DNA of 64,000 nucleotides from Bremia lactucae (Eukaryota > Oomycota > Peronosporomycetes > Peronosporales > Peronosporaceae). Position numbers and translations under genes: made by a program. The notes under the pieces are model-generated. The model did no database searches and had not been told where the DNA came from. It saw only the letters and a list, made by a program, of their open reading frames with translations. Of the stretch, positions 1 through 62,162 are shown one piece after another; position 1 is the stretch's first letter; each line of letters opens with the position of its first letter. Location: assembly GCF_004359215.1 (NCBI RefSeq), contig NC_090614.1, forward strand, positions 3,975,591-4,039,590. Reading direction: 5' to 3'.

Positions 1-876
1 GCAGAGATGACAGTACATCTCTCTCGTCTCTTGAAAAAAGACGAGAAATGGTTATGGAACGCTGATTGTCAGCGTTCATTTGAAGGAATCAAGCAAAGCT
101 TGATGCAATCGCCCATATTGGCGATTGCGGATCAAGACAGACCATTCCATGTGGTCTGTGACGCCAGCGATTTCGCAATCGGCTGTGCGTTAATGCAATA
201 CGATACAGATGGCGCGGAGCGCGTCGTCTGTTACCAATCGCGTCAGCTGCAACCAGCTGAACGCAATTATCCAGTGCATGACAAGGAACTCCTTGCCATG
301 AAATATTCATTGGCTAAATTTAGGGTCTACCTCCTAGGAGATAGACCGTTTATCGTATATACGGACCATGCGTCATTACGCACGGCCGTCAATAGCCCAC
401 ACCTCTCGCAAAAAATGGCGAGGTGGCTATCCTTCTTCGCGAAGTATAATTTCTCCGTCGAATGTAAACCAGGACGGCTTAATGTCGTCGCTGATGCGTT
501 ATCACGCCGATTCGATTTCGAGTCAGCAGTGCACTCCAACAGTGAAAATAATTTTACTGTTGCAACACTCACTACGAATGTTCCGTCATCCTCATTAGTT
601 GATGACATAAAGAAAGCCTACAAAGAAGATAAAGACCTTCTATGTTTAATGGATCATTTGATGAATCCATCCGATAAATCTTTTAAAGATTTACCGGCTT
701 TATATCGATCGTCATCCGATCGATACACAACACGTAACAGCTTATTGTATTACACAGTCGTTAGCGGCGACACCACACGTGTCGTCGTCCGAACTTACAA
801 TGATTTGCGCTTGCGCATAATGTATGAGTGTCACGATGCACCAACAAAAGGGCAGCGTGGAGGTGAGAAAACTTAG
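1..876 (+). pseudogene. Retrotransposon RNase H domain of pol (partial)
   Basis: An open frame runs from the window edge to a stop at 874-876. It carries a Ty3/gypsy RNase H: CDASDFAIGCALMQ (first Asp), KELLAMKYSLAKF (Glu), YTDHASLRT (Asp) and VVADALSRR (last Asp), so all four catalytic acidic residues are visible. It then runs into the connection to the integrase zinc finger (HDAPTKGQRGGEKT). The reverse transcriptase lies outside the window. The stop at 876 falls inside the integrase zinc-binding region, where the 56038 copy reads through, so the polyprotein is broken here. Confidence 0.88.
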
Positions 877-954
877 AGCGGATACCGACATTGATTAATG
901 AAGCTACCCCTAAGTTCAGAGTTGTGGAACAAATAGCTCACAGTAAGTCGAGAC

Positions 955-1581
955 TTTTACTGGCCCCGCCAGTATCAGTTCGTGCGCAAGTACATTCGTG
1001 CTTGCGATGTATGTCAACGGGTGAAGCCTAGCCCTTCATCCCGTGCACCTCTTCAACATCTACCACTTCCGGCAGAGTGTTGGCAGTCCGTATCTATGGA
1101 CTTCGTCTTCGGATTTCCCGAAGACGACCACAAAAACACACACAATAGAATCCTTATTTTTGTAGACAGATTCAGCAAGATGGTACATCTTGCTGCGGTA
1201 CCAGAGTCGATAACAGCTCCGGGTTGTGCCTGTGGCTTTATCGACACGTAATTCAAATTCCATGAGTTACCCCGTGAATTAGTGTCGGATAGAGATACAA
1301 GATTCACGGCGGAGTTCTGGCAATCCATGTTTTAATCTCTCGGAACACGGCTGACTATGTCAACATCCGATCACTCAGAAACGGATGGTCAAAAAGAACG
1401 CGTAAATCGCGTCCTCGAAGAGACACTTCGAGGTAACGTCCAATCGTATCCGAATTGGAGCGAGTTTTTACCGATGGTCGAATTCGCCATCAATTATTCG
1501 GTGCATGCGTCTACAACGCATACGCCGTTCTTTGTGAATGCATTACGCCATCCTCGCATACCCACCCAATTAGATGGATAA
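955..1581 (+). pseudogene. Retrotransposon integrase, broken
   Basis: Pieces of a Ty3/gypsy integrase lie in more than one frame. CDVCQRVKPS is the second half of the HHCC zinc finger. MDFVFGFPEDDHKNTHNRILIFVDRFSKMVHL holds the first catalytic Asp region, though written here only as a landmark for 1099-1190. TSDHSETDGQKERVNRVLEE is the end of the core with its Glu. A stop (TAA) at 1249-1251 and another near 1333 break the core. About 80 nt between RNase H and the zinc finger (876-955) do not match the 60.5 kb copy, so a small insertion is likely. Confidence 0.82.
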
Positions 1582-2040
1582 TAGAATTGCCACGTAGGAT
1601 GCAAACGCATCCTTCGTCTTACGTTGGTCGGCTCCGCCCGCACCATCAGTACGCGGTATCTTCCGAGGACGGATCTGACCACCCTATTCAAGATTCCCTA
1701 AAAGATTCTTGTGATCGCGAACCAGATTATCATGCCGGGTCCGGGAACCCTCGAAACCGCGATGAGCGGAACACAGCTCATCACGAAGATCGGAAGACAG
1801 CTCATCACGAAGAGCGTGCTATTTCCGTTTGTACTCCAACATGGAGAACGCACTCTTCGAACTGTCTTCCAACCGTTCGATATGGTGAGCCTGCGTCCTC
1901 TGCTCTAACGAGCGACGCTTACCGCGCTCGTGATCAAGTCCCTCTTCCAAATCATGGAGGAAGCGATCGAGTTTGTCGATCTTCGACTCTGGATCAGACA
2001 CATGGGTCGGATCTAATTTTTCCTCCTCCGCCACAGCCAT

Positions 2041-2270
2041 TGGTGGATTCCCACGGTGGTCAACATTTCCTTGTGGAACATATTCAAACAACCGTGATGT
2101 GAAGGGGTAGCGAACATGATATCTTTTTCGCTGGCGCGGTTATCCACCTTCACATGACAGCTGGGAGCCTCGTTCCCAGCTGATTGTTGACGTTGAGGGC
2201 CTCGTCCGTCAGTATGACGAGACCCATCCAATGGATCAGAAGGTCCATCGGAAAACACGCGCCTCTGGCG
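2041..2270 (+). pseudogene. Chromodomain remnant of the pol C-terminus
   Basis: Residues GGQHFLVEHIQTTVM, then after a stop and a frame change AGAVIHLHMTAGSLVP and PQYDETHP-like sequence, match the better kept chromodomain at 62163-62360 (LVRWRGYLPSHDSWEP). The C-terminal chromodomain marks this family as chromoviruses. In such elements the domain usually directs integration to modified histone marks; that is family knowledge, not seen here. Confidence 0.75.
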
Positions 2271-2355
2271 CCTGTATATCGATCGATTGCAAAACGTCAA
2301 TCGCATCGCGCATCTCGATAGAGATGCGAGCCCTTCCCCAGGGCGAAGAAAGGGA

Positions 2356-3252
2356 TTAAATATCCACTTTCAGTCGTTTCGTGTTGTCAATACAACACGG
2401 ACAGGGATCACCCCACGTGAGGCATGGAAGTCCTGCCTCACAAGACAACCGATGCAATTTATACCTTGCACCGGTTGGAATTCGTTTCTCAAACTTAACG
2501 TGAATTGCGTTAAGTCTTTGAAGCCAGGCTTCGCGTCCAATGTCTTTGACATTGCGAATGAACGCGCTCCAGGCTTGCATAAGCGAGACTTTATCTCGCT
2601 TATCGTTGACAGTATACCATTGATGCCTAAATAAAGCATCGAAATAGAAATCTTCCTCAGCGCGAATATTCTTCGCGCTGGAATCAAGGCCTGTAGCTTT
2701 GTCGCAATAAATGACGGATAATTATTGTGAGGAGTAGTCGCTCTAGACTAGCTAATAATTAGCTGTTCGGGCAAAAGCCACGGCTTCTTCTCATGGGCAA
2801 GACGAGACATTTTAGTGTCTACGATTCCCTGAGTGGTACCCACTCAAGCAGGGGTACCACAAGAACTTAAATTACGATGGCTCCGCCATCGTCATCACCA
2901 TGCACAGGAACATGTGTGAGTGACGGCACGGGAGATGGTACTGGCGATGAGAAACATCCTCATCGTCAGAACCGAACATGCTGTATCGAATGCTACCAGC
3001 ACGTCCACCAGAATGAGCCCCCTCATTCGAAGGCTCGTAGTCGGCCGCCTGACGATGATCAGGCGACTGTTCTGTTCTCCCCGAGACGGCCGTTTCGTCC
3101 GACACGCATTCGTAGTCGACCTCCAAAGAAGGTTCGCATTAACGTGGTGTATCACCACGTGCACAAGCAACATTTAGAGTTGCGGGAAACGATGACACTA
3201 CGCAGACGGAACGTCTGCCGCAAGAGACAATAATGCGTTGCCCGCGGCTGCA
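2356..3252 (-). pseudogene. Antisense ORF (aORF-I) of the family I chromovirus, broken
   Basis: The minus strand downstream of the chromodomain encodes a protein unrelated to Gag or Pol. An N-terminal acidic part (SPDHRQAADYEPSNEGAHS) is followed by a conserved block containing NVKDIGREAWLQRLNA and GARYKLHRLSCEAG, then TWGDPCPCC with a CPCC motif. The same block occurs antisense in the copies near 27.7, 47.1 and 62.6 kb. Compared with 62480-63247 this copy keeps about 195 nt more central sequence. Stops near 2761 and 3200 interrupt it. Function unknown; I do not recognise a family. Confidence 0.6.
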
Positions 3253-3690
3253 TATTTGCAATCGTTTGTAATTTAAAGAGCGAGATTTCTCGCTCATACG
3301 AGAGGTCCATAGGTTCTGCACCTTCATTTTCTTGTCGACTCGGAGGACGATAAGCTCTAGAGTTGACGAAATTCTGTAGCAGGCTGAAGACCCCCTGTAT
3401 CGCTACAGAGACCGCTTGATCTAGCGTCTCTAGTTTCAAGCTGGAACAGGTGCTTCTTGACAGGACCGTCTGCAAGACCTTAAATGAACACAATTACCTG
3501 TGTTTGTTCATATTTTGGATGACCCACGATACAACTTGCAAGGTATCGTGTATGTGTGGCATAAGCGTGAAGATCACGGTCAAATTCAGGAAGGCTGCTC
3601 AAGCCCTGAATTCGGCACGTGGCGGCTCAGATTTTTGTCTGAGACGGGTATTAAAGAGCTCATACGACCCATATAAATTAAAAAAAGAAT
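3253..3690 (-). pseudogene. gag fragment (capsid C-terminus)
   Basis: Minus-strand translation gives VLSRSTCSSLKLETLDQAVS, then RPPSRQENEGAEPMDLS, matching the gag of the copies at 21754-22131 and 43507-43893 (RPPRRQENEGPEAMDLS). The zinc-knuckle region is not preserved. The 5' half contains frameshifts. Confidence 0.75.
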
Positions 3691-22500: not shown

Positions 22501-23334
22501 ACATAAATTGGCAGCATCAAGTCTGACGATGCCTGCCGCTTGTTTATCAGGTGATCACCTGATGAACATCTTGGATCGTTTACAAGCAAGTGGATGTCCT
22601 TTGACGGCCTCTCTTATGTTTCGGTCATCTGCATGACTGCAGAAGACCTCAATGCGAATACCCTTCATATTGTAAAATTAGATACCGAAGGTTGGGCACA
22701 AGCCCAGAGAGCGTAAACGGTCCACCATTGTAGCGTGGGCATAGTTATCGATGGCTGTGCACAAGCACAGGCAGCGTCGACCACTCGAAAAGTTGAGTGG
22801 TACAAAACGAAAGATGTTTGCTTAAAAAGCAACATCCAAGAAAATTAGAAACTCCTGTCTGCAAGATACAGTGCGAAATTTCTAGATCCACTGTAGAGTC
22901 GTAGAGGATCTCGCTGTAATTGCGCAACACAGCTAGAGGCAGTCGGGCAGGATACTCCCAAATAAATTGAGAAAACAAGTCCCCAGAAACCAGTGGTCAA
23001 AGGCTCCCAGGTACTTTTGGAAATCGATTCCGAAAATGGAATTCGAGACATTAGATGTCTTAGCAAACAATGAATTAAGTGTAAGCACTTATACACTTGA
23101 TCTGATTGCGCCTCTGAAGTTAACTCCGGAGATAACTCAACTTCTAACGCTAGAACCAAAACGGTTCTTGCGTCATCTGCGTAGTTGCAAAGTCAAGCAG
23201 ATCTGCGTACTAGTCACAGAACACAAGAACGTGGCCGATATTTGGTCTGCAATCGTATGTCCTGAGAGGAACGGGTTCTCACCATCTCATCGATCGACCG
23301 AAGTCCCTCGATGAGAAGACTAGGATGGAACGAT

Positions 23335-24760
23335 TTACGTCAAATCCTGGGAGTCTTTGAAGATAAATCCTCTACCTAAGGGTTTAATCGAATTCAAGGA
23401 TGTTTTTCCTGAATTCGTACAAGTTGTCTGAGGAATAAAAGCACTCAAAACAAAATCGAACAGATATGAGTTTTTTCTTATGAAATACTGCGTCATACAG
23501 CAGTAGCCATTGCCTCGTAAACAAGTACTAGCGACCGATAAATTCTTTACCAATCGCTTAGCAGCGAGCCATGTGAGGAAGTTAGACTCTTCACATAGCT
23601 CTCCGACCTTCTGTGTGCATATTTTAACAGGACGATGGCGGATTGTGCATGCGTTTAATAGCTTAAACACTGCAAAGCTACCGGCTCAAACGCCGATGCC
23701 ACAAAAGACGTAATTGTTGATGGCATGTCAAAGAGTACTATCGTTTCGTCAACGGATCTAATTGATGGATTCTATTAGATCCTTATGCGTGAACAGGATA
23801 TCACAGCAGTAAGTACCCTAAGCGGAATACTATAGAAGTGGCTAGTATCTGCGACATTTAACAGATATGTAACCAGTCTGTTCAGATCGGTGCAGAATTT
23901 CGCGCCGTGCTATTTTGATGACGTAGTCATTCATAGCAGAGCCATGAACAGAAAAAAAACGTTAAACTACATCGTACCCACGTCCGAGACGCTCTTACAC
24001 TATGCGTAAGCTCAAGTTTCCTGCAATAGCAAGAAGAGTATATTCGCTGCAAGCAAAAGTCCACTTTTTGGGTGCATCGTGGGTAAACACGGTGTACGCT
24101 CGGATCAAGGCGATCACCGATTGGCGTGTGCCAGTCTATGTAAAGTATTAAGAAAGTTTTTCTGTTTAGCGGCGTACAGTACTCACGCATTATGCCGAAA
24201 TGACAGTACATCTTTTTTCTTTGTTGAAGAAATATGAAAAAGTAGTCATGGAACGCTGATTGTCAGCGTATTTCGAGGCTATTAAAAAAAAAGTTTTATA
24301 CATTCGCCAATTCTGGTGATTGCTGACGAAGACCAACCTTTTCATGTGGTCCGTGACGCCAGCGATTTTGCAATTGGCTGTGCGTGGAAATATGATACAG
24401 ACGGCGCAGAGCGCGTCGTCTGTTATCAATTGCGTCGGCTCTAACCAGCTCAACGCAACTATCCAGTGTACGACAAGGAACTCCTTGCTATGAAATACGC
24501 ACTGCCTAAGTTTAGGGTCTATCTCTTGGAATATGGACCATTCATTGTTCAAACGGACCATGCATCTTTACGCACGGCCGTACAGTCCATACATCTCGCA
24601 AAGAATGGCAAGCTGGTTGATTCTCTTTACGGAGTATAACTTCTTCGTGGAGCACTAAACACGACAAATTAACGTCGTCGCTGATGCCTTTTCGCGTCGG
24701 CCCGATTTTGAGCCGGCTGCCCAATCAACAGTGAGCATAAGGCCACTGTTGCAACGATAA
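23335..24760 (+). pseudogene. Reverse transcriptase and RNase H, decayed
   Basis: RT landmarks include PRKQVLATDKFFTNRLAASH (about 23511-23570), CYFDDVVIHSRAM with the YFDD active site (about 23908-23945), then RNase H pieces RDASDFAIGCAW, YDKELLAMKYALPKF, QTDHASLRTAV and VVADAFSRRPD (24340-24705). Multiple frames and stops. Confidence 0.75.
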
Positions 24761-24879
24761 GTGTTCTGTCGTCATGATTACTTGAAGATCTAAGAAAAGC
24801 ATATCGAAAGGATAAGGTTTTTAAAAGGTTTATGGATTACCTTAGCCATTACAACAATTCGTAAATGAACTGTCAAAAT

Positions 24880-26430
24880 TGTATCGATTCTCAATAGATC
24901 GATACACGACACGCAATGGTTTATATATTACACAGCCATTTCAGGCGACACACCTCGTCTCGTCAGCCTTGGCGCTGCGGTACACAAATGGGCGATATAC
25001 TTGGGCAGAAATTTGTTACTGCTTACATTCGTCACTGCAACTTTTAATAGATTTTGGTAGATTTACCGTAGACAGTAGGTTTTGGTCGTTAAGTTTAAAA
25101 TATAAGAATGTTTGCTCTCCAATTTTTGCCAGAGTTCCGTTTCTGTCGGTCCACCGCATCAGCAATGGAAACTGGTACAAAACGGGCAACTGTTTCTCTT
25201 GCCAGCAAGAAATTACCTGCTGACTCCATTTTGTCTTCAGTTCGACCGGTGCGCACTGCTGAGATGTCATTTTCCTCATTAGTGAGAACATTATTGCTCT
25301 CACTAATTTTTTGTTGCTTACGCTGAGTCTTTCAGCATCGTTTTCAAAGTCTGTAATGTCATAATTGCCACTAGTGAGTTGTCCACTTCAGTGTTGATTT
25401 AATCAACATTGGTATCCTTCGCATTGACAGCAACGTCAATGCGTGACGAGCAAGAGCTAGAGTGCTCTTTGCTCCAGCGTGTCCCTATCCCTGTTGAATA
25501 TTAATCATTCTCAAACGAGGTGGACATACGTAAATGGTAAAAGTTACTCTTGAAAAACGGAGTATTGTTTTGTAGAAGCATACACCGAACTGTTGATGCT
25601 AAATTCGGCCATCGGCAAGAACTCGCTCCAACTCGTAAAAGAGTGGACGTATCCGCGAAGTATCTCTTCAAGGACCATAATGAGTAGCGTTTACGCATCA
25701 TGTATAAGTATCAGTAAAGGGTCATCGTGAATGCTAGAAGACTTACCTCAAGTCGCGAAAGTCGCGACTTCTGCTGGCCTCGCCAGTATCAATTCGTCCG
25801 CATTCACACACGTTTGCAAAGTTTGGCAACAGGTGAAGCTCAGTGCATCATCCATGCTCCGTTACAACCTCTGCCTGTTTCATCAAAGTATTGGCAGTCC
25901 GGATCTTGGACTGTGTCTTCGGATTTCCGAAGACAATCACTATAAAAATGGTATTATTGTACTATTTTTATCGTTTCAGCAAATGGCCCATCTTGCTGGA
26001 GTCCCGGAGTCGATCACAGTCAACATCTGTGCTCGTATCTTGTTGACACGATATTTCGGCTCCATTATTACCCCGTTAATTGGTCTCAGATCGAGACCCC
26101 AGATTCACGGCAGCGTTTCGGCAAGCAGTTTTTAAATTACTTGGAACGCAGTTGAAAATGACAACTTTCGGCCATCGTGAAACAAATGGTCGGATGGGGC
26201 GTTCAAACCGTATCCTCAAAGAGATACGTCGCGTTTACGTCCACTATTTCACAAGTTGGAGCCAGTTCTTGCCGAGGATTGATTTTGCCATCAACAATTC
26301 AGTGCATGCTTCTACAAAAAATACATCGTTTTTTGTTAACGGCTTACGCCATCCACGTATATCACCCTGTTTGAGAGTAATTCCTGTACAAGGGAAACGC
26401 TCACACAAGCAAAGAAAAATCTAGCTCTTG
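24880..26430 (+). pseudogene. Integrase, decayed
   Basis: The core is visible in pieces: FGFPKTITIKMVLLYYFYRF (25918-25977), MVSDRDPRFTAAFRQAVFK (26080-26136) and HRETNGRMGRSNRILKE (about 26173-26223). Sequence like the integrase C-terminal region of the 61.4 kb copy (SIANAMDRQ) appears out of order at 25140-25330 and again at 26640-26780, so a local rearrangement or duplication has occurred. Confidence 0.65.
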
Positions 26431-27339
26431 CTCATCCCGCATTGACCCTACTGTCATTGCAGCGGATACCAATATCGATTTCAGTCAACATTGAAGTGAA
26501 CAAACTCAAAAAGGACAAAATGCCATTGCTGACTTTAATAGTGACGCTAAAAGACTCAGCATCCAAAACAATGATGCTAGTGAGAATAAAAATGCCCTCA
26601 CAAAAACGGAGATTGACATCTTCATAGTGCAAACCGGTCGCACTGAAAACAAAAATAAAACTGGGTCAGGGGGTGATTACCTGATGGCTACAGTAACAGT
26701 GGTGCGTTTCGTACAGAATTTCATCGCTGATGCGGTGGACGACAGAAACAAAACTCTGACAAAAATGGAAGAGCAAACATTCTTTTATATAATGCTAGCT
26801 ACCTTGTTCTACTGCCGTTAGTAAATTTACCATGACATGTAGTGACGACTGTGGGCAGAAATATATAACTGCCCAAGTGTATCGACCCGTTCCGTGTACT
26901 GCACATGTTCACACGATCGAGCTGCATCGTAGGATGCGTGTGATTCAACGTTTTATTTTGGGATCTTCGCCCTGACTACCAGTACGAGGCTAGTTTTTTT
27001 CTTCCGGATCCTCTCGGAACGGTATGAGGCGTCTGCCAAAGCCTGATGGCTCCGAGCTAAAGACTGATAGTCTCGGTACAGAGTCTGGTTCTCATGAATC
27101 AGATAATCCACTCTTTTCTCCAAGGTAAAGATCTTTTAACAAGCTGTTTGAGCTCTTTGTGAAAGGACTGATGTGTCCTTTTGTTCGCCGGTTGATCTGT
27201 CACAATTTGCATACAAATTCTGAACTAACCCAGAAACATTATAAACCATCATCGCTAACTCGCGGCGTGTTCCCATCATATATGATTGGTGTGATCCAAT
27301 TCACGGTGTTGACTGGGGTTTGTCGAACGTGGCGAACTC

Positions 27340-31519: not shown

Positions 31520-32172
31520 CCATTTTGTTCCTCGATTAAGGAATTTCAAGATGTGGTATGAACCAATCCACCATCTCTTTTACGCTAAGGTAGAGATATC
31601 TGTCATGAATTTGACTTAATTCCTGGATCGAAATACTGTGGCACACGACACTGGTCTTTAACAAGAGAACAGTGTGGCGTCATTGACGACTTTCGTGGTA
31701 AGCATGAGGCTGGAATAGTACGAGAGAGCAAATCTCCCCATTCGACAACGCCATTTTGTGTTCAGAAGCCAAATAGTAAATGGCACATTGCGCATTCTGA
31801 TAGCAAGCTTAATGCTGTCACTATACCAGCACAAAACCTCATTCCCAGAAAGGACGTTCTTCAGAACAATAGGTGAAATGCACAGTGCACTTAATTTAGT
31901 CGATGTTTACTATCAACTGCTCATTCGAGCTAGCATCTCCCACTTACAGCGGTTACTCCAGGCGGTATGGCATGGGAGTGGTTCGTTATGCCACAAGGGT
32001 TTTCCAACGCCCCGGCAGCAATTAACTGTCTAATGACGCAGCTATTCCGCCCTAATCGAGGTTATGCACAGAACTTATTTTGATGACATTTTTTTCTATA
32101 GTCGTGCGGAGCAGGGTCGGTCGGATGTGGAAAGCCATCTAGACCATTTGCGAGCAGTGCTAGAGTGTATGC
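31520..32172 (+). pseudogene. Reverse transcriptase, family II, decayed
   Basis: CHEFDLIPGSKYC, then KSPHSTTPFCVQKPNSKWHI, PAQNLIPRKDVL and RTYFDDIFFYSRAEQG with the YFDD active site (about 32070-32112). Stops at about 31560, 31580 and 32034. Confidence 0.8.
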
Positions 32173-32199
32173 GCACAATATAATTGTAAGGCAATGCAT

Positions 32200-32900
32200 C
32201 CTATATGAATTTTTGGCGCATTTGATTAATTTCTTTCTTAGGAAGTCTCATTCGGATCCCGCTGAAATAAAAGCCATAGTAAATTGGCCGTTCCTTGAAA
32301 CTAAAAGGATTTGCGTAAATGGTTCGGTGTCGCCAATTGTTTACATAAATATAGCGAAAATTACGCTGATATGGGCAGGCCATTATCTAATCTCCTTTAA
32401 AAAGGGTATAGAATGGTGCTGGACTAGCACCGAATATAATGCTTTTCGAGCAGTTAAGGATAGTCTTATCCATGCCCCGATTCTGGCACTACCAAATCCA
32501 AATTGGCCTTTCAGTGTCGTCAGTGACGCTTCGAATCTTGCCATTGGCAGTGCTTTGTTACAAATAGATGTTGATGGGCGTGAACGTGTTATTGCGTTCA
32601 AATCTAGGCAGCATAAAGCTGCGGAAAAGAACTACCCAGTTCATGGCAAAGACTTACTTGCTATGAAGTATGCTCTCGTCAAATTCAGAGTTCATCTGCT
32701 CGGCTTCAATCCGTTTGTGATAAAAACAGATCACGCGTCATTACGCACGGCGACTAAGTCGCCCCACCTCTCACAGAGAATTGCCCGATGGCTACCCTTT
32801 TTCGCCGAGTTCAGCTTCGAGGTGAAGTAAAAGCCTGGCAAGCAGATTGCTTTGGCCGATGCGTTATCACGCAGGCCAGATTGTGAGCTATCTCATTTAA
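32200..32900 (+). pseudogene. RNase H, family II
   Basis: SDASNLAIGSALLQIDVDG, HGKDLLAMKYALVKFRVHLL (Asp in place of the usual Glu), KTDHASLRTATKSPHLSQ and LADALSRRPDCELSH. One stop (TAA, 32828-32830) separates the last part. Confidence 0.85.
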
Positions 32901-33059
32901 CGACTATAATGTCGCCTATTACTGAATTGATCCGCACGGCTTACGCCAAGGATAAACAGTGTGTTGCTCTGCTTCGAGCTCTAAAGAACTCTTACTCGGG
33001 TTTTAAACTGTCGGCACGCTTGCGTGCAAGGTTACATCGATTTTCTTTCGATAACGACC

Positions 33060-34494
33060 TATTGCTTTATTGCACGGACGCTGCGGATTCTCCACGCGTC
33101 GTTGTTCCGCATGTTGAGGATTTGAAGAACCGAATTCTCCATGAGGCACAAGATACTTTACTTGGTGGTCATCTCGGTACAGAAAAGACCTACAGCTCTG
33201 TAAGCCAGATTTATTGGTGGCCCAAACTTATAAATGGGTCAGCAAATACGTTCGCACATACAAAACTTGCCAGCGGGTAAAGCCCTCGGCGCATGCTGCA
33301 GCGACACTGACAAGTAGGCCCGTACCAATAGGGTGTTAGGAGTCTATTTACATGGATTTTTTGGTCTACCGGAAGATGTGGCCGGTAACTCTGGCGTAGT
33401 GGTTTTTGTTGACCTATTGAGCAAAATTCGTCATTTAGCGGCTGTGCCGGATACCATTGATGGTGGAGGTACATCAAGGATGTTCATCGACCGCGTGATT
33501 GGACAGCACGGTTTGCCAGTGGCAATTGGCTCTGATTGGGACCCCCGTTTCACGGGTAAATTCTGGAAATCAATTTTCTGAGTGCTTGGCACCAGATTGG
33601 ACATGTCCACTGCGGTCCATCCGCAGACGATGGTAAAACTAAACGTGTCATCGCGTCATTGAAGACGTTTTACGGTGTGTTCTCAGACACCGAAGCTCTC
33701 GGCTCAAGGCTCCCAGTGGTAATGTCTGCGTTAAATAACGCTGTCCATGCCTCTACAGGCTACACTTCTTGCTATGGCAACGGTCTCACCCACCCACGCA
33801 TTCCGTTAACGATACCACTGCGTGGTTTAGGGTTTGGTGGAAGGGGAAATTAGCCGATAGTCTTGCTGATATTAGCCCTGTTACCATTAAAAAACAAGTC
33901 AGCGAGTTTCTCGCGACGCGATTTAGTGTCTTAAGACATGTACGTGACACAATGGCTGATAATCAAGACAAACAAAAAGAACAAGCAGATACCAAAGGTA
34001 GAAGCTGTATTAATTCTTATATGGTCGGAGACCGAGTTTTATTAAAAGCTAAAAATCAACCTACTAACTTGGTTTCCGCGGTCTTCACGACCAGATTACG
34101 CCCGCGCTTTAATTGGCCATTAATGGTCGTGGCCAAGAAGGGTCTAGCTTACACGCTAAACCTTCCTAGCAAGTCGCGTTCACACCCAGTGTTCTACGTT
34201 GGCTTGCTTAACCCATATCGGGACCCTTCTCATGTGGACTTAAAGGCGCTTGCGCCGAGACAGGCGATCGTGCCGCAGATTGCAGCATCCTCACCACGAT
34301 GTCCAGCTGGACCTCTAAACGAGGTTGCTGACGTTCCAGCATCGAAGGCCGATTCAGCACCGCCTCAAAAAAAACTTAACCCGAGAAAGGCTCTCACGGA
34401 AGAAGTTGTACCTCGTGCTTTCGAGCATGCACCACGAGGCCGGCTCGCAGTTTGGGTCTCCGCCGAAATTTCGGCCCCCTCCCGCGCTGCTTGA
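33060..34494 (+). pseudogene. Integrase, family II
   Basis: Zinc-finger HEAQDTLLGGHLGTEKTYSS (33140-33200), a degenerate second half (TKLASG for CxxCQ), core FVDLLSKIRHLAAVPDTI and GSDWDPRFTGKFWKSIF (33405-33581), and a C-terminal part (33900-34250) with VGDRVLLKAKNQPTNL and HPVFYVGLLNPYRDP. Several stops. Confidence 0.82.
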
Positions 34495-34496
34495 TG

Positions 34497-34680
34497 CGCG
34501 GGGGAACCTTCAGTTTCACGTGAAGGAACTTTTAAAGCGACGTCGTCCAAAGGGCCAACACCAGTATCTGGTGAAGTGGCTGGGGTACGTCTTTACAGAT
34601 AATTATTGGTAGTTTGAGATACCTCTTCGGCAAGATTGCCCGCACACCGTTGACCTTTTTGAGCGCCCAGCTCAGGGTCA
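34497..34680 (+). pseudogene. Chromodomain, family II
   Basis: FHVKELLKRRRPKGQHQYLV and KWLGYVFTDNYW, then after a stop FEIPLRQDCPHTVDLFERAQ. The aromatic-cage-type chromodomain is recognisable. A TAG at 34610-34612 interrupts it. Confidence 0.8.
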
Positions 34681-41128: not shown

Positions 41129-41667
41129 TTAAGGGTTCTATGGCATAGTGTTGCTTGTCTGTGCTGGGCAACTCAACGTTTGTATGTGCTGCAGCGAGCG
41201 GGTTTTGTGACGATATCAATGAGTCGCTCAGCTCTAGCAAAATTCGTATGTTTCCTGAAAAAACACCCCTTCGGATGTTCTTACTTACCTCTTAATCGGA
41301 GTAGCGAGAAAATAGTTTTAGGAAAGGTTGTGCCTCTGGTTACAATGCTTGGATTTCCTCAGCCGCTCTAACGCATACTTCAGACAAAGACCGTCGCCTT
41401 GGCTGTATAAGCGGTGGTATGAGGCTTGCAGCGATGGTCGCGACAATGGAAACAATAGAGACGACTATTCCTTTATTATCTTAATGAAAATGCTCCTGTC
41501 CAACGCCCGGGTGTGCTGAAGCTGTCTCAATCCATGTGGACACTGCCCAAGTATTCCATTAGACTAATAGCTCTCACCATATTGAAAAATTGATCATTCA
41601 TAGTGGGCTAATCAATGAGCCGCTTATAATAATGCAACATTCCAACATTTTTATGGAGTAAAATTAA
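41129..41667. other. Unassigned sequence
   Basis: About 540 nt between the solo LTR and the truncated minus-strand element. Two short open frames (41180-41371, 41328-41519) show no recognisable domain. Confidence 0.4.
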
Positions 41668-41689
41668 ATGGTCTGTCTTGGTCCGCAAT

Positions 41690-43250
41690 CGCCCGGATTG
41701 CCGATTGCATCAAGCTTTGCTTGATATAGTCAAAGAAGCGCTGACAACCGGCATTCCATGACTAATTTACACTAATTTTTAACAAAAAAGAAATATGTCT
41801 GTAGTTTCGGCATAATTGCGGAAGTACTTATGTAAGAACGCCGCCAAGCTGAGGAACTTTCAAAGTCCCTTTTCATTGACTGAAATAGGCCAGTCGGTGA
41901 TCGTCTTGAAATTTCCAGGATCAGGCATAGGCATAGGCATACACTGTATTACCCACAATACACCCATATAGTGATATTCGCTTGCAGTAAATATACTCTT
42001 CTTGAGATTTGCAAAGCAACTTGTGATTACGCATAAGTGTAAGAGCTTTTCGAACGTGGGTACGATGTACTTCAACGTCCGACTTTCTCTTCATAGATCT
42101 GAGATGAAATAAGACGTCAAAAAATTAAATCGGTGGGAGATCCCGCACCGATCTCAACAGATTGGTAACACATCTGCTGAATGTTGCTGGGGCATTATGA
42201 AGCCCCTGTCGCAAGACTAGCCACTCTCATAGCATTCCGCTTGGGGCACCTACTGCTGTAAACGGGATATGCTGTTCACGCGCAAGGATCTTATAAAAGT
42301 CATCCATCAGATCCATTGACGATAAGATAGTACTCTTTGACATACCATCAATGATTACGTCTTTTTGTGGCACCGGCGTTTAATCCTGTGCCGCTGCAGC
42401 GTTTACTTTATTATACGCATGCGCAATTCGCCGCCTTCCTATTGTTTTACGAACACACAAGGTCGGAGAGCGATGTGGGGAGGTTTACTCCCTCACATAT
42501 CCCGCTGCTAAGCGATTAGCAAAGAATTTTTCGATCGCTAATACTAGTTTAAGAGACAATGGTCACTGCTTTATATCAGAGTATTTGGAACCTGAACTCA
42601 GGTCGATTCCGTGTCAAGTGCCTTTATCCTTTGGCAACTCGCACGGTACGGGAACATTCTTGAATTTGATTAAATCCTTATGTTAAGGTTTTGTCTTAAA
42701 AGACTCCTAGAATTGGGACGTAGAACATTCAATCCGAGTCTTCTCACCGAGGACACTTTCGTCTATCGATGGGCTGCCGAGGACCCGTTCGTTATCAGAA
42801 AGTACTATTGCCGACTAAATATCGACCACGAAGTTGTCATCTGTGACAAGTTAGCAGATCTGCTTGACTTCGCCACTACGCAGATCACACAAAAACCGTT
42901 TCGGGGTGTTCACAGGATTGTGGACGCTCCAAGACGTTCATCAGATGGTCATCTGATGAACGAGATGCAGGACCGTAACGGCTTCATGCTGCCAGTTCAA
43001 CATGTCTCGTACTTTCTGAGCCACGGTAATCCAAGGATGACATCAAATTTGTCATTTATATCTGGGACGATGAAATTATCATCGCACTGTTCACCCTCGT
43101 CGCTGACTGGTTATCAACTACATGTATCTTTCTGTTACGGATGAGCCTGTTGCTAGGCGCACTGTTATCCTCGTTAGAGGTACATCGCGCTTAATCGATT
43201 TGAGTCTGTGATCTTCTAGCGATTAACACTCCACAACCGACCACTATAAA
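41690..43250 (-). pseudogene. Protease, RT and RNase H start, decayed (minus)
   Basis: Protease C-terminal sequence and the following CSSDGHLMN-like spacer lie at about 42930-43200, and RT segments at 41840-42560 match the 59 kb copy in reverse orientation. The RT palm region near 42100-42350 contains several stops. Confidence 0.65.
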
Positions 43251-43506: not shown

Positions 43507-44330
43507 TCACGTATAGGCGGAGTGGCCCGTCTTTTGACAGCGGTTGCATTTATGCAAACACTTGTTACGTGAAAAGCGAGGTTTCTCGCTCTTTATTTGC
43601 GAGAGATCCATAAGTCCTGGGCCTCCGTTTTCTTGTTGTCTCGGAGGGCGATAATCTTCAGAGTGGACGAAAGCCTGGTTCAGGCTAAAGTCCTCCTGTT
43701 CCACTGAAGAGATCGCTTGGTATAGTGTCTCTAGTTTAAGCCGGAACAGGTGAGTCTTGACAGGACTGTCTGCAAAACTTGATATAAACATAATTACTTG
43801 TGTTTGTTCATCTATCGGATGACTCACGATACAGCTTACTAGGCATCGTGTATGTTGGGCATAAGTGTGTAGATCACGCTTGCCCTGCTTCAAATCCAGG
43901 AGCTCGGCTCGAGCCCTGAATACGGCACATGGCGGCTCAAATGTTTGCCTCAGCTGGGTTTTTCGGGTCGACGCAGAAGCGTTTACCCATTAGCAGCACT
44001 TGCATGCTGCTATCTCGACAGCTCTAACTGTTGAGCACCCTGTTGTCTCAAAAACTCTGCGTGTTGAAAGCCTTGCTGGTGAAGTAAAATTATTTTTTCT
44101 TCGGCCTCGTCGAGTTCATATTGTATGAACTCGGTTATAGCCGCGTGTTGCTTATGGCTGGCCATCCAACCACCAAATTGTGCGCTCAATCGCTCTCCAT
44201 TCAAAGTCACTCAAATGAGTGAACATTTCACGCATTGTGTGATAGCCTTCTTGAGGGGCTTGGAAGATTCCTCAATCTTTATCCAACATGTACATGTTGG
44301 ATGGAATGTGCTTAGGCGGTTGGACTGACT
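43507..44330 (-). pseudogene. gag, family I (minus)
   Basis: N-terminal part (44010-44210): HKQHAAITEFIQYELDEAEE, then LLHQQGFQHAEFLRQQGAQQ, a Gln-rich helix. Then capsid/nucleocapsid (43507-43893): KQGKRDLHTYAQHTRCLVSC, VKTHLFRLKLETLYQAIS, and zinc knuckle CNRCQKTGHSAYT (last Cys replaced). A frameshift lies between. Confidence 0.78.
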
Positions 44331-44346
44331 ACGATGTGCTACCAGG

Positions 44347-44806
44347 TGTAGCGGGCCACCTTTTGCTAGTACTGATAACAGTACTAGTCAATCTAGACTT
44401 ATTACAGAGTACGTGGGTTGCCTCGATCACTTCAGTCTAAAGAATAATTTAAGTGCTTTAGACTAGGGAAAAGTAAAACTGTATGAATACATTAAGTTCC
44501 GTCGTGACGATCTTCTATCTACTCACTTTAATATATTAATAGCTTACTATGCAATGCGCCTCCTCGCGCGACGCTTAATCGTGTCTTGTAACGATTGGCG
44601 GGTTAGTTTATTATATTTTGCTCAACCAATCAATTGATTAATGTTTAATTGCGTCAATATTATCAAATTTAATAATAGTGGAACTATCAAATCAAAATTA
44701 ATAAAGTATATTAATCTTGTACATATTTTTCATTTCCTCTCATATAAAATAAATTACCTGTTCCTCTTGCAGAAATAATATTTATGTAACGGTACACCCC
44801 GTTTCA
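44347..44806 (-). repeat. 5' LTR, family I (minus)
   Basis: The reverse complement starts TGAAACGGGGTGTACCGTTA and ends AAAAGGTGGCCCGCTACA, with the AGTACTGTTATCAGTACT hairpin near the end. It heads the minus-strand element. Confidence 0.8.
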
Positions 44807-45059
44807 GTAACCTGGCTTAGTCGCCTTTTAAAAGTGAAGACTTTGTCGAAGAAAAATGCGAACGATACATTTATTTGACCTTTGGGCGGAATGAGAAGCT
44901 CCACGACCATATGTCGTCGCTGATGCCCTTACGCGCCGGCCCGATGTTGAGCCGGCTGCACAAAACAACTGTGAGCATGAGCTCACTTTGCAACAATAAT
45001 TGTTCCGTCGTCAACATTACGTGACGACGTTAGAAGAGCCTATCTAGAAGATAAGCTCT

Positions 45060-45690
45060 AAAAGAGTTGATGGGTTACCTTTAAAGTACGTCACAAAAGT
45101 TCTTTAAAGAATCGTCGAAAATGCATCGATCGACAACGGATCGATAAAATAAGCACTGGTTTACTGAATGACACAGTCATTTCTGGCGACACACCTAGTG
45201 TCGTCATACCCGCCGATAATAATTCAGTGCCACGATGCACCAATAAGCGGGAATCATGGACGTGAGAAGTTCCTCACACTAAACGACTTCTACTGCCCAC
45301 GCCAGTTTATACGGATCTCACATTACTGCAAACGCAATGAGCTCACCGCACCTCTCGCCTAGAAGTGCAAGATGGCAGCATACGTGCTTGCGAAATTTGT
45401 CACCGGATGAAGCACAGTGCTTCATTCCGTGCTACGCTACAACCGCTTTTTGTTCCGGTGGGTGTTGGTAGTTCGCATCGATGGACTTTGTCTTGAAGAC
45501 GATCACAAAATTATTGAAACCGTGCAGAAATTATCCTCGAGGAGATACTTCGCGGATACGTCCACTAGTCTGGAAATGGATCGTATTCTTGCCAATGACA
45601 TAATTTTCTGCCTTCATCAATTCGGTGCATGTATCAACAAAGCACACCCCGTTATTCGTGAATAGCTTGTACCATCCACGTTTACACACG
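45060..45690 (+). pseudogene. Integrase fragments, decayed
   Basis: Pieces such as QCHDAPISGNHGREKFLTLN (zinc finger start, about 45223-45290) and RRYFADTSTSLEMDRILAND (about 45540-45600). The catalytic core between is largely deleted. Confidence 0.6.
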
Positions 45691-46570
45691 CATTGCTTGA
45701 GAGTGACTCTTATCCAAGGAAAGGTAGGGACACGCTCGAGCAAAGAACAATTTAGCTTCTTTTTTCACGCATTGACTCAACAGTCGCTGCGAAGGATATC
45801 AATGTTAATTTAATAGAATTGGATAGGACAAACTCATAATAGCGATACGGCTATAGCTGACTTTACTAACAATGATGCTGATACACCAACATCGAAAACA
45901 ATAAAATTATCGAGAACAATAATGCTCTCACTAATGACGAGCGTGACATCTCCGCAGTACGCACCAGTCGCACTGAAGACAAAAACAAAACCGAGTCAGC
46001 AGGAGGAGAATTTCCTGCTGGCTAGGAAAGCAGTGGTTCGTTCCGTCCAGGTTTTCATCGCTGATGCGGTGGACCAACAGAAGCGGAACTCTACAAAAAA
46101 AGAAGAGCATACATACTTTCATTCAATGTTTATGATCTTGTTCTACATTCTACAACAAACCTTCCAAAACATGTAGTGACGAATGCGGGCAGAAATATTT
46201 TCCTGCTCAGGTATATCGGCCCGTTTCGTGTACTGCACTGCCAAGGCAATGCGTACACGATCGAGCTGCTTCGCAGAATGCGTACGCATCATACGCTTTA
46301 TAGCGGGCGGTTCCGAACCACAACGAAACGGTCTGAGGCGTCTGCCAAAGCCTGATAGTCCCGAGCCAAAGCATAATAGTCTCAGGACAGAGTAATATTC
46401 TCACGAGCCAGACGTTCCGCTGATTATCCAAGAATGAAATCTTTTGACGAGGTGTTGCCAGCTCGTACTGAAGGGACTAGTGTGTCCGTTCTTTCACCAG
46501 TTTTAAATTGCAACTTGCGCACAGTTTTTAGCTGGTCACGAGAAATATTGCCGACCATCACCTCAAACTC

Positions 46571-46880
46571 GTGACTGCGGGATCACTCGGATTCAATGTC
46601 GTCCCGTTAATAATGGAGGACGTGATCCAAGTCACGGATTTGACTCATATTCGGCGAACGAGGCGTTCTCCTCCACATTCATTGACGGATTCGAGTGGTG
46701 AAAAGCATTTCTTTGCTGAACGCTTAACAAACCACCGTAAAGTGAAAGGGGTTCAAAATTGTTATCTCTTTCGTTTGCGAGGGTACCCACCCTCGCATGA
46801 TAGTTAGGAGCCTCATTCCCAACTGACGTTGGACATTCCTGGTCTCGTTCGACGGTACGACGAGTCCCATCCTCCTCGAC
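46571..46880 (+). pseudogene. Chromodomain, family I
   Basis: EKHFFAERLTNHRKVKGVQN and CYLFRLRGYPPSHDS lie in an open frame ending at a stop at 46805-46807. Downstream WSRS-like and RRYDESHP sequence continues in other frames. Confidence 0.7.
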
Positions 46881-46999
46881 AGAGAGTTCATCAGAGAACG
46901 AGCACTCTCCGCGCTCGTAAAAGGATGAAAGATTTTCAATCGCTACGCGCACCTCTCAAGAGACTTGCGTCATTCAATAAGGGTCTTTACGGGATATAT

Positions 47000-47840
47000 A
47001 TCCTTAAAAGGCATAACCTGCAACCTTAAAACAGCATGGGCATGAGTTCCCTTCCCACGAGAGGCAAAATATCCCAGCCTTTTTAGACAAACGGTACAGC
47101 TTGTAGCGTGCACCGACTACGGTCCGTATTTTGAATTGGTCACGGAAAGCATCCAATTTGTCAAGCCAGGCCTCGCGGCCTATGCTTTGCACATTCTGTA
47201 CGAATGCTTCCCAAGCTTGGAAGAAGGAGTAACATCATTTGCCCTTTTACCTATGAACAATCGATGCCATAAAAGGCATCAATGAAAAAAAAATTCCGTT
47301 TCGTCCTTTCCAGGCTTGTGGATCCTGGATGAGCTGAATAGCGGAACACGATACCGATCGTTGGTCATACTAGACCAACGAGTAAGGTTGCCCTCAAAGG
47401 GCAACCTAGTATTCTTTTGGGAGCAAACCGCCAAACATTGCGGTCCCTCTCCCGTTGACTTATGTTAACATTAACGCTAGCATTACTCTCGGAGAGATCC
47501 TTAAAATCACTTCGTCCCTGGTGATGCATACTGACATCACCAGAGTCATCATCGTCCATGGAGTCATCACAAGATGAATCCGCACAAAAGGGAAGACGAG
47601 GTATTAAACAACTTCCTCACCACCTATTTGGTTGTCAGAACCCGTTGGTTTAACAGACGTGGCCCGAGTTGATCCGGAAGCCTTACCAGTTGCCACCCAG
47701 TCGGAAAATGTCGCCGACTCAGCCCAGCTACAATAGGAGTAAATGTGACTTGTCGCAGTCACCTGTAATGTGGTAGCAGGTGAATTAGGACTACAGGTGG
47801 GCACTTCGTAATGCGGCCACGCTCTACTTAGACACACACC
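47000..47840 (-). pseudogene. Antisense ORF (aORF-I), diverged subtype
   Basis: The best kept block, minus strand 47004-47220, reads AWEAFVQNVQSIGREAWLDK, RTVVGARYKLYRLSKKAG and CLSWEGNSCPCC. It aligns with RNVKDIGREAWLQRL, GARYKLHRLSCEAG and CLTWGDPCPCC in the 2.4 kb copy. Many codon differences are synonymous on the minus strand (GTC/GTG, ATT/ATA, GGA/GGC, GAA/GAG). Upstream parts at 47365-47559 and 47604-47837 lie in other frames. Confidence 0.62.
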
Positions 47841-47894
47841 CTAGCGCAGCGAGGAAGCGGTTTAACCAGCTTCTCTTGCGTGCAGTCAAATAGT

Positions 47895-48298
47895 TGTGGT
47901 GGGCGCATTAGTGACCTCACCCAACACACGAAGTACTCTGGTTAAGTGTCGTCACGAGAGCGGTAATTCGGCTCCTCGTGCGCACTTACCAAGTAGGAAG
48001 TAGTTTCAAACCGATTTATATTTAATCGTGTTAGATATAAATACCTTTATTTACAATCAAAATGTAATCTCTATAGATAACACTCAATATGTATTGCGAG
48101 CGTGTCTTTCTAGCTTCCTCGCGTAACGGATGACGCTGGGCGTCATCCCTCCTAATGTGAATGCACCCATGTGCATCACATACACAAGGGTTGGTCACAA
48201 ATGTGCACCACACCCGAGTGTTGGGTCTAATTACTATAATTTAGTAATTGACTATCCCCTTAAGTACACCAAGTGTACTTAACGGGGACTGTGTAACA
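47895..48298 (-). repeat. LTR of another family (minus), ends uncertain
   Basis: The reverse complement begins TGTTACACAGTCCCCGTTAA and continues AT-rich with an AATAAAGG motif. It contains perfect hairpins at 48260-48282 (10-bp stem) and 48128-48148 (9-bp stem). It resembles neither family I nor II. A TGTAACGGGCTAAAG stretch just outside (to 48322) may belong to it. The lower-coordinate boundary is a guess. Confidence 0.45.
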
Positions 48299-48322
48299 TT
48301 ACGGCAACTTTAGCCCGTTACA

Positions 48323-56037: not shown

Positions 56038-56480
56038 TGTAACGGGCTGTATCGTTACATGAAATTAACACTTAAGCTTGAAATTTAAAATATTATCTAA
56101 AAGGTAGAGAATATTTAGAGAATATTACTTTATATAGTAATGCTCGGAAATCTTATCCATAAATAGGTATAAGCACGTTATATCTATTTATCCCGCAGAC
56201 TAATCAGCTGTAAACGTAAACAAAGAGAGAGAGACAGATAGATTTCAATTGCATGTTTAGTATTAGTTTATAATTAAGTTTAGCATTAACAGATAGAAAG
56301 AAGAGAAACTTAATTATATTAATACAGTTTTCATTTAATCCTCTTTAAGGTAGTTGTCTTAAAGAGAAGTCTTCCTCTGCACGTACTAGTGTACGTGGTG
56401 TGACGTAAGGCACCCTCGCAACTGAAGCAGTGCGAAGTGGACTTGTACTGAAGCAGTACAAGTCGTAGTGCCCCGTTACA
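56038..56480 (+). repeat. 5' LTR, family I
   Basis: TGTAACGGGCTGTATCGTTA ... GTGCCCCGTTACA, 443 nt. The last 140 nt hold a row of perfect hairpins (56341-56366, 56380-56397, 56440-56464). The 3' LTR lacks about 50 nt of the middle region (between GCTCG and TCAGCTGTAAACG). Confidence 0.9.
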
Positions 56481-56481
56481 C

Positions 56482-60200: not shown

Positions 60201-60429
60201 CTACGAGTGTTCCGTCATCAACCTTAGTTGATGACATAAAGAAAACCTACAAAGAAGATAAGGACCTTCTATGTTTGATGGATCATTCAATGAATCCATC
60301 CAATTAATCTTTTGTATTTTACTGGTTTTATATCGATCGTCATCCGATTGATACACAACACGCAACGGCTTATCGTATTACACAGCCGTTGCTGGCGACA
60401 ATCCACGTGTCGTCGTCCCAACTCACAAT

Positions 60430-62040: not shown

Positions 62041-62162
62041 CTTGCCATGCTTGAGGTCAACTCACTCCTCCAAATCATGGAGGAAGCGATCGATTTTGTC
62101 GATCTTCGACTCTAGATCCAACACACGGTTCGGATCTAATTTTTCCTCCTCCACTACAACCA

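What the first reader, a model, noticed from the sequence alone, without database searches (positions are those of the whole stretch)
1..3252. Retroelement sequence saturated with short perfect hairpins
Reading 1-1450 by eye I found eight perfect stems of 7-9 bp with loops of 3-7 nt: 88-104, 137-159, 243-260, 675-693, 703-725 (9 bp), 1104-1126 (9 bp), 1174-1194 (9 bp) and 1413-1433 (8 bp). With equal base use, about 0.6 stems of at least 7 bp with loops of 3-9 nt are expected in 1450 nt. More follow at 2493-2515, 2539-2555, 2579-2603 (10 bp) and 2874-2892. They lie in pol and in the antisense ORF region alike. MIOX and CPT1 show nothing near this density. Either the element RNA is selected to be highly folded, or a mutation process such as template switching by reverse transcriptase keeps perfecting small inverted repeats. 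I know of no description of this in oomycete elements.
Basis: partly seen in the sequence, partly recalled or inferred. Interest (0 to 1): 0.86.

Follow-up and report, generated by a model that had tools for sequence, protein, structure and literature searches.

The report
Hairpin-saturated retrotransposon in lettuce downy mildew
A jumping element that is common in the lettuce downy mildew genome is packed with short, perfectly paired hairpins, about twenty times more than chance; the pairing looks preserved while the element multiplies and lost afterwards, so it is real and may well be useful to the element.

Summary
Confirmed, and stronger than claimed. Window 1-3252 holds 32 perfect stems (>=7 bp, loop 3-10) against 1.5 in dinucleotide shuffles. 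The pol ORF holds 9 against 0.68 in codon-preserving shuffles; five host genes sit at chance. The sequence belongs to a Ty3/Gypsy family of Bremia lactucae. Folding-energy excess is 30-32% on the sense strand against 1% in host DNA; PMC7642675 gives 23.4% as its highest viral genome mean.

Substitutions private to one copy (read as decay after insertion) hit stems at nearly the general rate and create stems no more often than chance (59 against 56). Variants shared by several copies are about half as dense in stems and 1.5-1.8 times as dense in loops as elsewhere. Pairs co-vary between lineages. So pairing is maintained in the multiplying lineage.

Both strands are about equally structured, and conserved mismatches do not favour G.U over A.C, so it is not ordinary sense-RNA folding.

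Best reading: selection keeps both strands folded, resembling genome-scale ordered RNA structure (GORS). The advantage (avoiding duplex or RNAi) is inferred. Template-switch conversion during reverse transcription is the main rival.

The parts
1..3252 (+). Copy 1 of the Ty3/Gypsy element (pol to 3' region), hairpin-saturated; its 5' part lies upstream of the window
   Evidence: 32 perfect stems vs 1.49 expected; similarity to copy 2
1..876 (+). Open end of the pol ORF (RNase H region), 9 perfect hairpins
   Evidence: Pfam RT_RNaseH 2.4e-34 and RT_RNaseH_2 3.7e-34; codon shuffles 0.68 vs 9
934..1577 (+). Integrase region of copy 1, outside the pol ORF that stops at 876; hairpin-rich
   Evidence: similar to copy 2 60502-61132, 88.8%; tblastn with integrase-bearing homologues
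1578..3253 (+). 3' region after integrase, dense hairpin tiling
56041..56480 (+). 5' LTR of copy 2, with hairpins at 56341, 56380 and 56440
   Evidence: 82.3% identical to 63323-63708; hairpins
56821..57534 (+). gag-like ORF of copy 2
   Evidence: Ty3_capsid and DUF4939, E about 6e-4, below their cut-offs
58000..63720 (+). Copy 2, pol to 3' LTR, 9.1 hairpins/kb (measured on 58000-63700)
63323..63708 (+). 3' LTR of copy 2
23044..26480 (+). Old copy or relative of the same clade, about 70-73% identical, hairpins fewer
41663..42886 (-). Old relative, 72% identical to copy 2, most of copy 2's hairpins not present
44000..48400 (+). Another hairpin-rich Gypsy stretch (3.4/kb, MFED 0.20); the tblastn matches to pol cover only parts of 44841-45810
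31900..34500 (+). Control: different Gypsy element, hairpin-poor (0.4/kb), strand-asymmetric fold
3..22 (.). hairpin 7 bp
22..46 (.). hairpin 8 bp
57..77 (.). hairpin 9 bp
88..104 (.). hairpin 7 bp
105..128 (.). hairpin 9 bp
137..159 (.). hairpin 8 bp
243..260 (.). hairpin 7 bp
675..693 (.). hairpin 8 bp
703..725 (.). hairpin 9 bp
958..974 (.). hairpin 7 bp
1103..1127 (.). hairpin 10 bp
1173..1195 (.). hairpin 10 bp
1413..1433 (.). hairpin 8 bp
1596..1613 (.). hairpin 7 bp; at this location one other copy has the commonest loop exactly inverted
1761..1782 (.). hairpin 7 bp
1908..1931 (.). hairpin 7 bp
2158..2182 (.). hairpin 9 bp
2309..2328 (.). hairpin 8 bp
2380..2399 (.). hairpin 8 bp
2417..2441 (.). 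hairpin 8 bp
2493..2515 (.). hairpin 8 bp
2538..2554 (.). hairpin 7 bp
2579..2603 (.). hairpin 10 bp
2658..2680 (.). hairpin 9 bp
2830..2846 (.). hairpin 7 bp
2833..2860 (.). hairpin 9 bp, alternative to 2830-2846
2874..2892 (.). hairpin 8 bp
2945..2965 (.). hairpin 7 bp
3011..3028 (.). hairpin 7 bp
3046..3065 (.). hairpin 7 bp
3142..3160 (.). hairpin 8 bp; register shifted in copy 2
3202..3218 (.). hairpin 7 bp; loop is the exact inverse of that in three other records

Best explanation
A multiplying Ty3/Gypsy lineage of Bremia lactucae carries a dense chain of short Watson-Crick hairpins (arms 7-12 bp, loops mostly 3-10 nt) through gag, pol, the 3' region and the LTRs. Selection during the element's life cycle keeps the pairing. 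It acts on folding of both strands (sense RNA and its complement, such as minus-strand cDNA or antisense RNA), not on the sense RNA alone. Shown here: the excess, its presence in all parts of the element sampled, approximate strand symmetry of the predicted fold, co-variation between lineages, low shared variation in stems and high shared variation in loops, and near-neutral loss by private substitutions. Inferred: that the cause is selection; that private substitutions are mostly post-insertion decay; that the benefit is keeping complementary strands folded so that they do not anneal into long duplex that feeds silencing.
For: Excess over dinucleotide and codon shuffles. Mean folding z of 150-nt tiles (+/-): copy 1 -3.77/-3.50 (21 tiles), copy 2 -3.42/-3.23 (38 tiles), host -0.34/-0.43 (34 tiles). 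MFED in 350-nt fragments: copy 1 0.32/0.28, copy 2 0.30/0.34, L023 0.32/0.32, host 0.01/0.01. Shared variant sites per column (stem/elsewhere/loop): 0.058/0.100/0.179, 0.050/0.104/0.157 and 0.034/0.104/0.159 at three thresholds; carriers of shared stem variants that are paired again: 32 of 147, 32 of 119 and 16 of 55. Private substitutions with stems defined from the other copies: stem 0.0427, elsewhere 0.048; 4 of 282 re-paired. Watson-Crick double changes: 534 of 896 double changes, where independence predicts about 442 double changes of any kind (sums mine). Compensated transversions and at least one paired indel. Stretches without a perfect stem of 6 bp or more still fold: z -1.3 to -1.75 in 29 tiles of copy 1, copy 2 and L023, -3.0 to -4.1 in 7 tiles of L012 and L028, against 0.09/0.04 in 27 host tiles (decayed stems may contribute). 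No recurrent stem over 12 bp at 70 locations (tiles overlap slightly).
Against: No function was tested. Stem columns were chosen because they are perfect in 25-50% or more of copies, which lowers shared variation there by construction (the loop excess has no such bias); singletons are also somewhat lower in stems (0.40-0.42 against 0.50 per column). Within the 21 main copies the excess of paired double changes is small: 20 cells against 12.2 in column shuffles. Stem lengths fall off smoothly (25, 19, 14, 6, 5, 1 for 7-12 bp), so there is no sharp upper limit. Exact loop inversions (3 against 0.12 expected) point to template switching at some of these repeats. The conserved-mismatch spectrum (27 of 32 transition type) does not differ clearly from shared variation elsewhere (292 of 423, p=0.07). 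A related Gypsy in the same window lacks the trait, so it is not a general need. Copies are related to one another, so counts are not independent.
Confidence: 0.5

Rival explanations
1. Mutation drive: during reverse transcription the nascent strand snaps back or switches strand at small imperfect inverted repeats and copies one arm from the other. Over many cycles perfect hairpins accumulate without benefit, limited only by the protein code.
For: Strand symmetry and no G.U preference are expected. Exact loop inversions: 3 of 125 minor loop alleles with two or more changes, 0.12 expected, the signature described in yeast (PMC8604942, passages read). Compensated transversions and a paired indel. 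Much weaker in the 4 Copia loci examined (19 against about 6.5) and at chance in another Gypsy. One private 21-bp hairpin at 13297-13341 in an unrelated repeat, absent from 6 of 6 relatives read, looks like a single switch.
Against: No same-arm clustering of differences. Private substitutions create stems at the chance rate, 59 against 56.2, although these are probably mostly post-insertion changes. Shared variants are depleted in stems and elevated in loops. Stretches without perfect stems still fold more than shuffles.
Confidence: 0.28
2. Ordinary selection on sense-strand RNA structure only (packaging, stability, translation), as in structured viral RNA genomes.
For: Strong sense-strand folding; stems constrained and loops free. 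Among rare one-mismatch stems (present in 15% of copies or fewer) G.U exceeds A.C, 29 against 16.
Against: G.U should be tolerated far more than A.C. Conserved one-mismatch stems seen in at least 3 copies give A.C 18, G.U 9, other 5 (16, 8, 5 without sites counted twice); all mismatches present in half the copies or more give A.C 36, G.U 18, other 35; intermediate frequency A.C 8, G.U 6, other 7. Single changes give 174 G.U and 173 A.C, 2806 and 2898 (sums mine). Minus strand about equally folded.
Confidence: 0.1
3. Template switching or cruciform-linked repair in host chromosomal DNA perfects inverted repeats in all repeats.
For: Loop inversions; the 21-bp private hairpin; a roughly threefold excess in 4 Copia loci.
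Against: Five host genes at chance; private substitutions destroy 260 stems and create 59, the latter at chance.
Confidence: 0.05
4. Artefact of base composition, codon use, sequencing or assembly.
For: The assembly is reported as gapped and repeat-collapsed (PMC6570648, passages read); nine copies are 100% identical over 875 nt beside N runs.
Against: Shuffles and codon shuffles; the same hairpins recur, with compensated changes, in copies 7-35% diverged.
Confidence: 0.02

Closest known systems
Genome-scale ordered RNA structure (GORS) of positive-strand RNA viruses (PMC7642675, passages read)
   Same: Excess folding energy throughout; many sequential short stem-loops in coding and non-coding sequence; no long uninterrupted duplex (paper: runs over 14 bp avoided; here no recurrent stem over 12).
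   Different: An LTR retrotransposon, not an RNA virus; MFED 0.30-0.32 on the sense strand of 3-6 kb stretches against the paper's highest genome mean of 0.234 (its local peaks exceed 0.5); perfect Watson-Crick arms; both strands alike; pairings mostly homologous where a hairpin is present in both relatives (1219 homologous, 61 displaced, 1183 absent, sums mine), whereas the paper reports mostly non-homologous pairings.
Template-switch arm homogenisation and spacer inversion (PMC8604942 yeast genes; PMC8794818 rRNA hairpins; passages read)
   Same: Perfect short inverted repeats, exact loop inversions, compensated pairs.
   Different: Density (about 10/kb) far beyond isolated events; no sign of arm conversion in private mutations.
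Coding palindromes in Nematomorpha mitochondrial genes (PMC6649704, abstract and passages read)
   Same: Perfect inverted repeats inside protein-coding sequence, with conversion or structure as open explanations.
   Different: There repeats of up to 284 bp in mitochondrial genes; here arms of 7-12 bp tiled across a nuclear retrotransposon.
Ty3/Gypsy LTR retrotransposons of oomycetes
   Same: RT/RNase H followed by integrase, LTRs, close Phytophthora and Peronospora homologues.
   Different: The hairpin saturation, absent from another Gypsy of the same window.

Membership tests
Ty3/Gypsy LTR retrotransposon | RT/RNase H domains of the Gypsy type | tested here: met
   RT_RNaseH and RT_RNaseH_2; 1121 homologues, best 120 listed, oomycete where a source names the organism in the listing
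Ty3/Gypsy LTR retrotransposon | Integrase downstream of RNase H | tested here: met
   tblastn with integrase-bearing homologues over 1-1575 and 59123-61235; in copy 1 the pol ORF stops at 876, before it
Ty3/Gypsy LTR retrotransposon | Direct LTRs | tested here: met
   56041-56480 and 63323-63708, 82.3% identical; copy 1 not tested for its 5' LTR
Ty3/Gypsy LTR retrotransposon | Gag capsid | tested here: inconclusive
   Ty3_capsid E 6.7e-4, below cut-off
GORS | MFED well above shuffles across the sequence | tested here: met
   0.28-0.34 on either strand vs 0.01 host, on the stretches free of N only
GORS | Sequential short stem-loops without long duplex | tested here: met
   stems 7-12 bp at 70 recurrent locations
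GORS | Pairings poorly conserved between relatives | tested here: not met
   1219 homologous vs 61 displaced
GORS | Positive-strand RNA virus with persistence | tested here: not met
   LTR retrotransposon; filed only as 'works like'
Template-switch mutation | Exact spacer inversion | tested here: met
   3 of 125 minor alleles with two or more changes vs 0.12 expected; a fourth is a one-base change
Template-switch mutation | Clustered one-arm changes that perfect the repeat | tested here: not met
Selected RNA structure (sense strand) | G.U tolerated over A.C in stems | tested here: not met
   only rare mismatch stems lean to G.U (29 vs 16)

The most novel reading that the evidence does not exclude
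A retrotransposon lineage has evolved a both-strand folding armour: much of its sequence, including pol codons, is arranged as short Watson-Crick hairpins so that sense RNA and its complement stay self-folded and do not anneal, hiding the element from RNA silencing. This could help explain how Gypsy elements came to fill 58.6% of the B. lactucae contig sequence.
Probability: 0.3. Interest if true: 0.88.

Novelty: new variant of a known kind. Interest (0 to 1): 0.78.

Why it matters
Large-scale ordered structure is described for RNA viruses. Here a retrotransposon shows a mean folding excess above the highest viral genome mean in the paper consulted, on both strands, in a plant pathogen genome dominated by such elements (Gypsy 58.6% of contig sequence, PMC6570648). 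The many decayed copies act as a built-in neutral control, so selection and mutation drive can be separated directly. Either answer would be new to me: a structural counter-defence of a retroelement, or a reverse transcriptase that rewrites its own genome into hairpins.

Tried and rejected
Sense-strand RNA selection (G.U vs A.C, strand z): rejected as sole cause. Host-DNA template switching: private mutations show no pairing bias. Same-arm clustering of changes as a sign of conversion: none, in hairpins or in position controls. 5' versus 3' arm polarity: none consistent; one of six identity bins (88-92%) has 161 against 207 differences. Sharp stem-length cap: not supported. An identity gradient along copies and nine copies identical over 875 nt first looked like localised mutation or gene conversion. 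In those nine the stretch begins at, or 21 nt from, an N run, and the assembly is reported as gapped and repeat-collapsed, so I read it as collapsed gap edges; this is unproven, since L023 is 99.9% identical there without an N run nearby. I left those tiles out but not out. Relatives' DNA from other oomycetes: none found in viral contigs or genome contigs; the one weak relative (29% identity) is not hairpin-rich (1 vs 2.2). Rfam: no match in the window at gathering thresholds. Copia: 19 vs about 6.5 in 4 loci chosen from 150 listed matches; 10 of the 19 are in one locus, which shows no similarity to the three Gypsy stretches compared.
Full report
WHAT IT IS. The window is G000:C5:3975591-4039590. 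The genome is Bremia lactucae: a protein of this family named as B. lactucae lies on a record of 3,964,575 bases, the length of contig C7. The published assembly is 115 Mb with 24 Mb of gaps, collapsed repeats and 58.6% Gypsy (PMC6570648, passages read). Window 1-3252 is part of a Ty3/Gypsy element (RT_RNaseH; homologues in Phytophthora, Peronospora and other oomycetes). A longer copy with two LTRs lies at about 56041-63708. In the genome, 39 further places match at 93-96% in pol; only 40 of 4750 candidates were scored.

THE OBSERVATION. Perfect stems of at least 7 bp with loops of 3-10 nt: 32 in 1-3252 against 1.49 in shuffles. The pol ORF has 9 against 0.68 in codon shuffles; five host genes have 0, 0, 1, 0, 1. 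The excess begins at stems of about 6-7 bp, is strongest at loops of 3-12 nt, weaker at 1-2 and 13-15, and absent at loop 0. All 20 loci fetched around copies are dense: 27 to 63 stems per 8.9-kb locus (N included) against 1.4 to 5.0 from a Markov model. Of six arbitrarily placed 10-kb loci, two are strongly dense (56 and 40 stems; both contain members of this family), one moderately (17), and three have 4 to 7, against 2.7 to 5.7 expected. Copia loci: 10, 4, 2 and 3 against 1.8, 1.2, 1.7 and 1.8, a weaker excess that is mostly in one locus. A different Gypsy at 31.9-34.5 kb has 0.4/kb; another Gypsy stretch at 44-48.4 kb has 3.4/kb.

HOW STRONG IS THE FOLD. Mean z of 150-nt tiles (sense/antisense): copy 1 -3.77/-3.50, copy 2 -3.42/-3.23, 5' part of copy 2 -3.57/-2.90, L023 -3.32/-3.75, L011 -2.10/-1.99, host -0.34/-0.43, hairpin-poor Gypsy -1.50/-0.42. 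MFED in 350-nt fragments: copy 1 0.320/0.280, copy 2 0.302/0.344, L023 0.316/0.323, host 0.010/0.008 (stopped by the time limit after these four of six rows). PMC7642675 (passages read) gives 15% for SARS-CoV-2, 7.5-10.7% for HCV and 23.4% as the highest genome mean, with local peaks over 50%. It used 350-base fragments but a different step and program, and whole genomes where I have stretches of 3-6 kb, so the comparison is approximate.

IS PAIRING MAINTAINED, AND WHERE. Between copies, pairs co-vary: double changes number 132, 302, 279 and 183 in the identity bins 65-75, 75-82, 82-88 and 88-93%, where independence gives 66, 155, 152 and 69; 87, 195, 166 and 86 of them are Watson-Crick. Within the 21 main copies the excess is smaller, 20 paired double cells against 12.2. 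Examples include compensated transversions and a paired indel in an LTR hairpin (CTCTTTAAG/CTTAAAGAG against CTCTTAAG/CTTAAGAG; the automatic 'paired indel' class of that call also holds register shifts). Substitutions private to one copy, with stems defined from the other copies only, occur at 0.0427 in stems, 0.048 elsewhere and 0.061 in loops, and 4 of 282 are re-paired. Of 2201 private substitutions, 59 create a stem of at least 7 bp where random base choice at the same positions gives 56.2; 260 destroy one. Variants shared by at least three copies behave otherwise: per column 0.050 in stems, 0.104 elsewhere and 0.157 in loops, and 32 of 119 carriers are paired again (middle of three thresholds; the others give 0.058/0.100/0.179 with 32 of 147, and 0.034/0.104/0.159 with 16 of 55). 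So pairing is maintained in the multiplying lineage and not in the private history of single copies. Limits: stem columns were picked for being perfect in many copies, which lowers shared variation there; the loop result is free of that bias. Singletons are 0.40-0.42 in stems, 0.50 elsewhere and 0.46-0.48 in loops.

SENSE RNA, BOTH STRANDS, OR MUTATION. Sense-RNA selection should tolerate G.U far more than A.C (general knowledge). Conserved one-mismatch stems seen in at least 3 copies give A.C 18, G.U 9, other 5 (16, 8, 5 after removing three sites counted twice in overlapping tiles); without the 3-copy rule the conserved class is 36, 18, 35, the intermediate class 8, 6, 7, and the rare class 16, 29, 43, which leans to G.U. 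Single changes are 174 G.U and 173 A.C. The strands fold about equally. This leaves both-strand selection or a strand-symmetric mutation process. For mutation: exact loop inversions, 3 of 125 minor alleles with two or more changes against 0.12 expected (plus one single-base case), at the locations of 1596, 3202 and L030:8629; compensated transversions; a trait confined to part of the Gypsy elements. Against it: no same-arm clustering, no pairing bias in private changes, elevated loop and reduced stem variation in shared variants, excess folding in stretches without perfect stems (where decayed stems may contribute). The transition share of conserved mismatches (27 of 32) is higher than in private stem mismatches (148 of 278, p=0.0006) but not clearly higher than in shared variation elsewhere (292 of 423, p=0.07), so that test is inconclusive. 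I favour selection on folding of both strands (0.5) over conversion during reverse transcription (0.28).

MECHANISM PROPOSED. Shown: a hairpin-tiled sequence, folded on either strand in silico, with pairing maintained between lineages. Inferred: folded sense RNA and folded complement anneal poorly, so less long duplex is available for silencing; arms of 7-12 bp are too short to be diced. The last point rests on general knowledge of Dicer, not on a call. No small-RNA data were available to me.

A CAPTURED SWITCH NEARBY. At 13297-13341 another repeat has a 21-bp perfect stem. All six relatives read lack the extra 10 nt; two of them have a 9-bp stem with a 10-nt loop and four have no perfect stem of 7 bp. 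The window copy's right arm is the exact reverse complement of its left arm, including changes seen in none of the six (40 of 812 candidates scored). This looks like one template-switch event and suggests that such events occur in this genome. It does not show that they made the Gypsy hairpins.

NOVELTY. Searches of the held open-access library listed no description of hairpin saturation in an LTR retrotransposon; only listings were seen, except for the papers named here. Subscription papers and preprints are not covered. PMC8604942 and PMC8794818 were read in passages, PMC6649704 in abstract and passages.

Noticed in passing
window 13297-13341: 21-bp perfect hairpin with a 3-nt loop in another repeat family; the 6 relatives read lack the extra 10 nt and have shorter stems or none, so it looks like a single private template switch.
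   Followed up: yes
window 31900-34500: A Gypsy element with no hairpin excess whose fold is strand-asymmetric (z -1.50 sense, -0.42 antisense), unlike the main family.
   Followed up: partly
L014-L022, first 875 nt of the shared pol stretch: Nine copies are 100% identical over 875 nt and diverge downstream; the stretch adjoins N runs, perhaps collapsed gap edges in the assembly.
   Followed up: partly
L011, L022, L024, L028: Segments of roughly 90-490 nt of element sequence are in inverted orientation relative to the rest of the copy; breakpoints not examined.
   Followed up: no
window 17328-19844 (-) and 37010-39526 (+): Two carnitine acyltransferase genes of equal length (839 aa) in opposite orientation, possibly an inverted duplication.
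   Followed up: no
window 877-933: About 57 nt present in copy 1 right after the pol stop and absent from copy 2 and the other copies shown.
   Followed up: no
element copies, hairpin loops: Loops carry more private substitutions than other non-stem sequence (0.061 vs 0.048), but not more singletons (0.46-0.48 vs 0.50); unresolved.
   Followed up: partly
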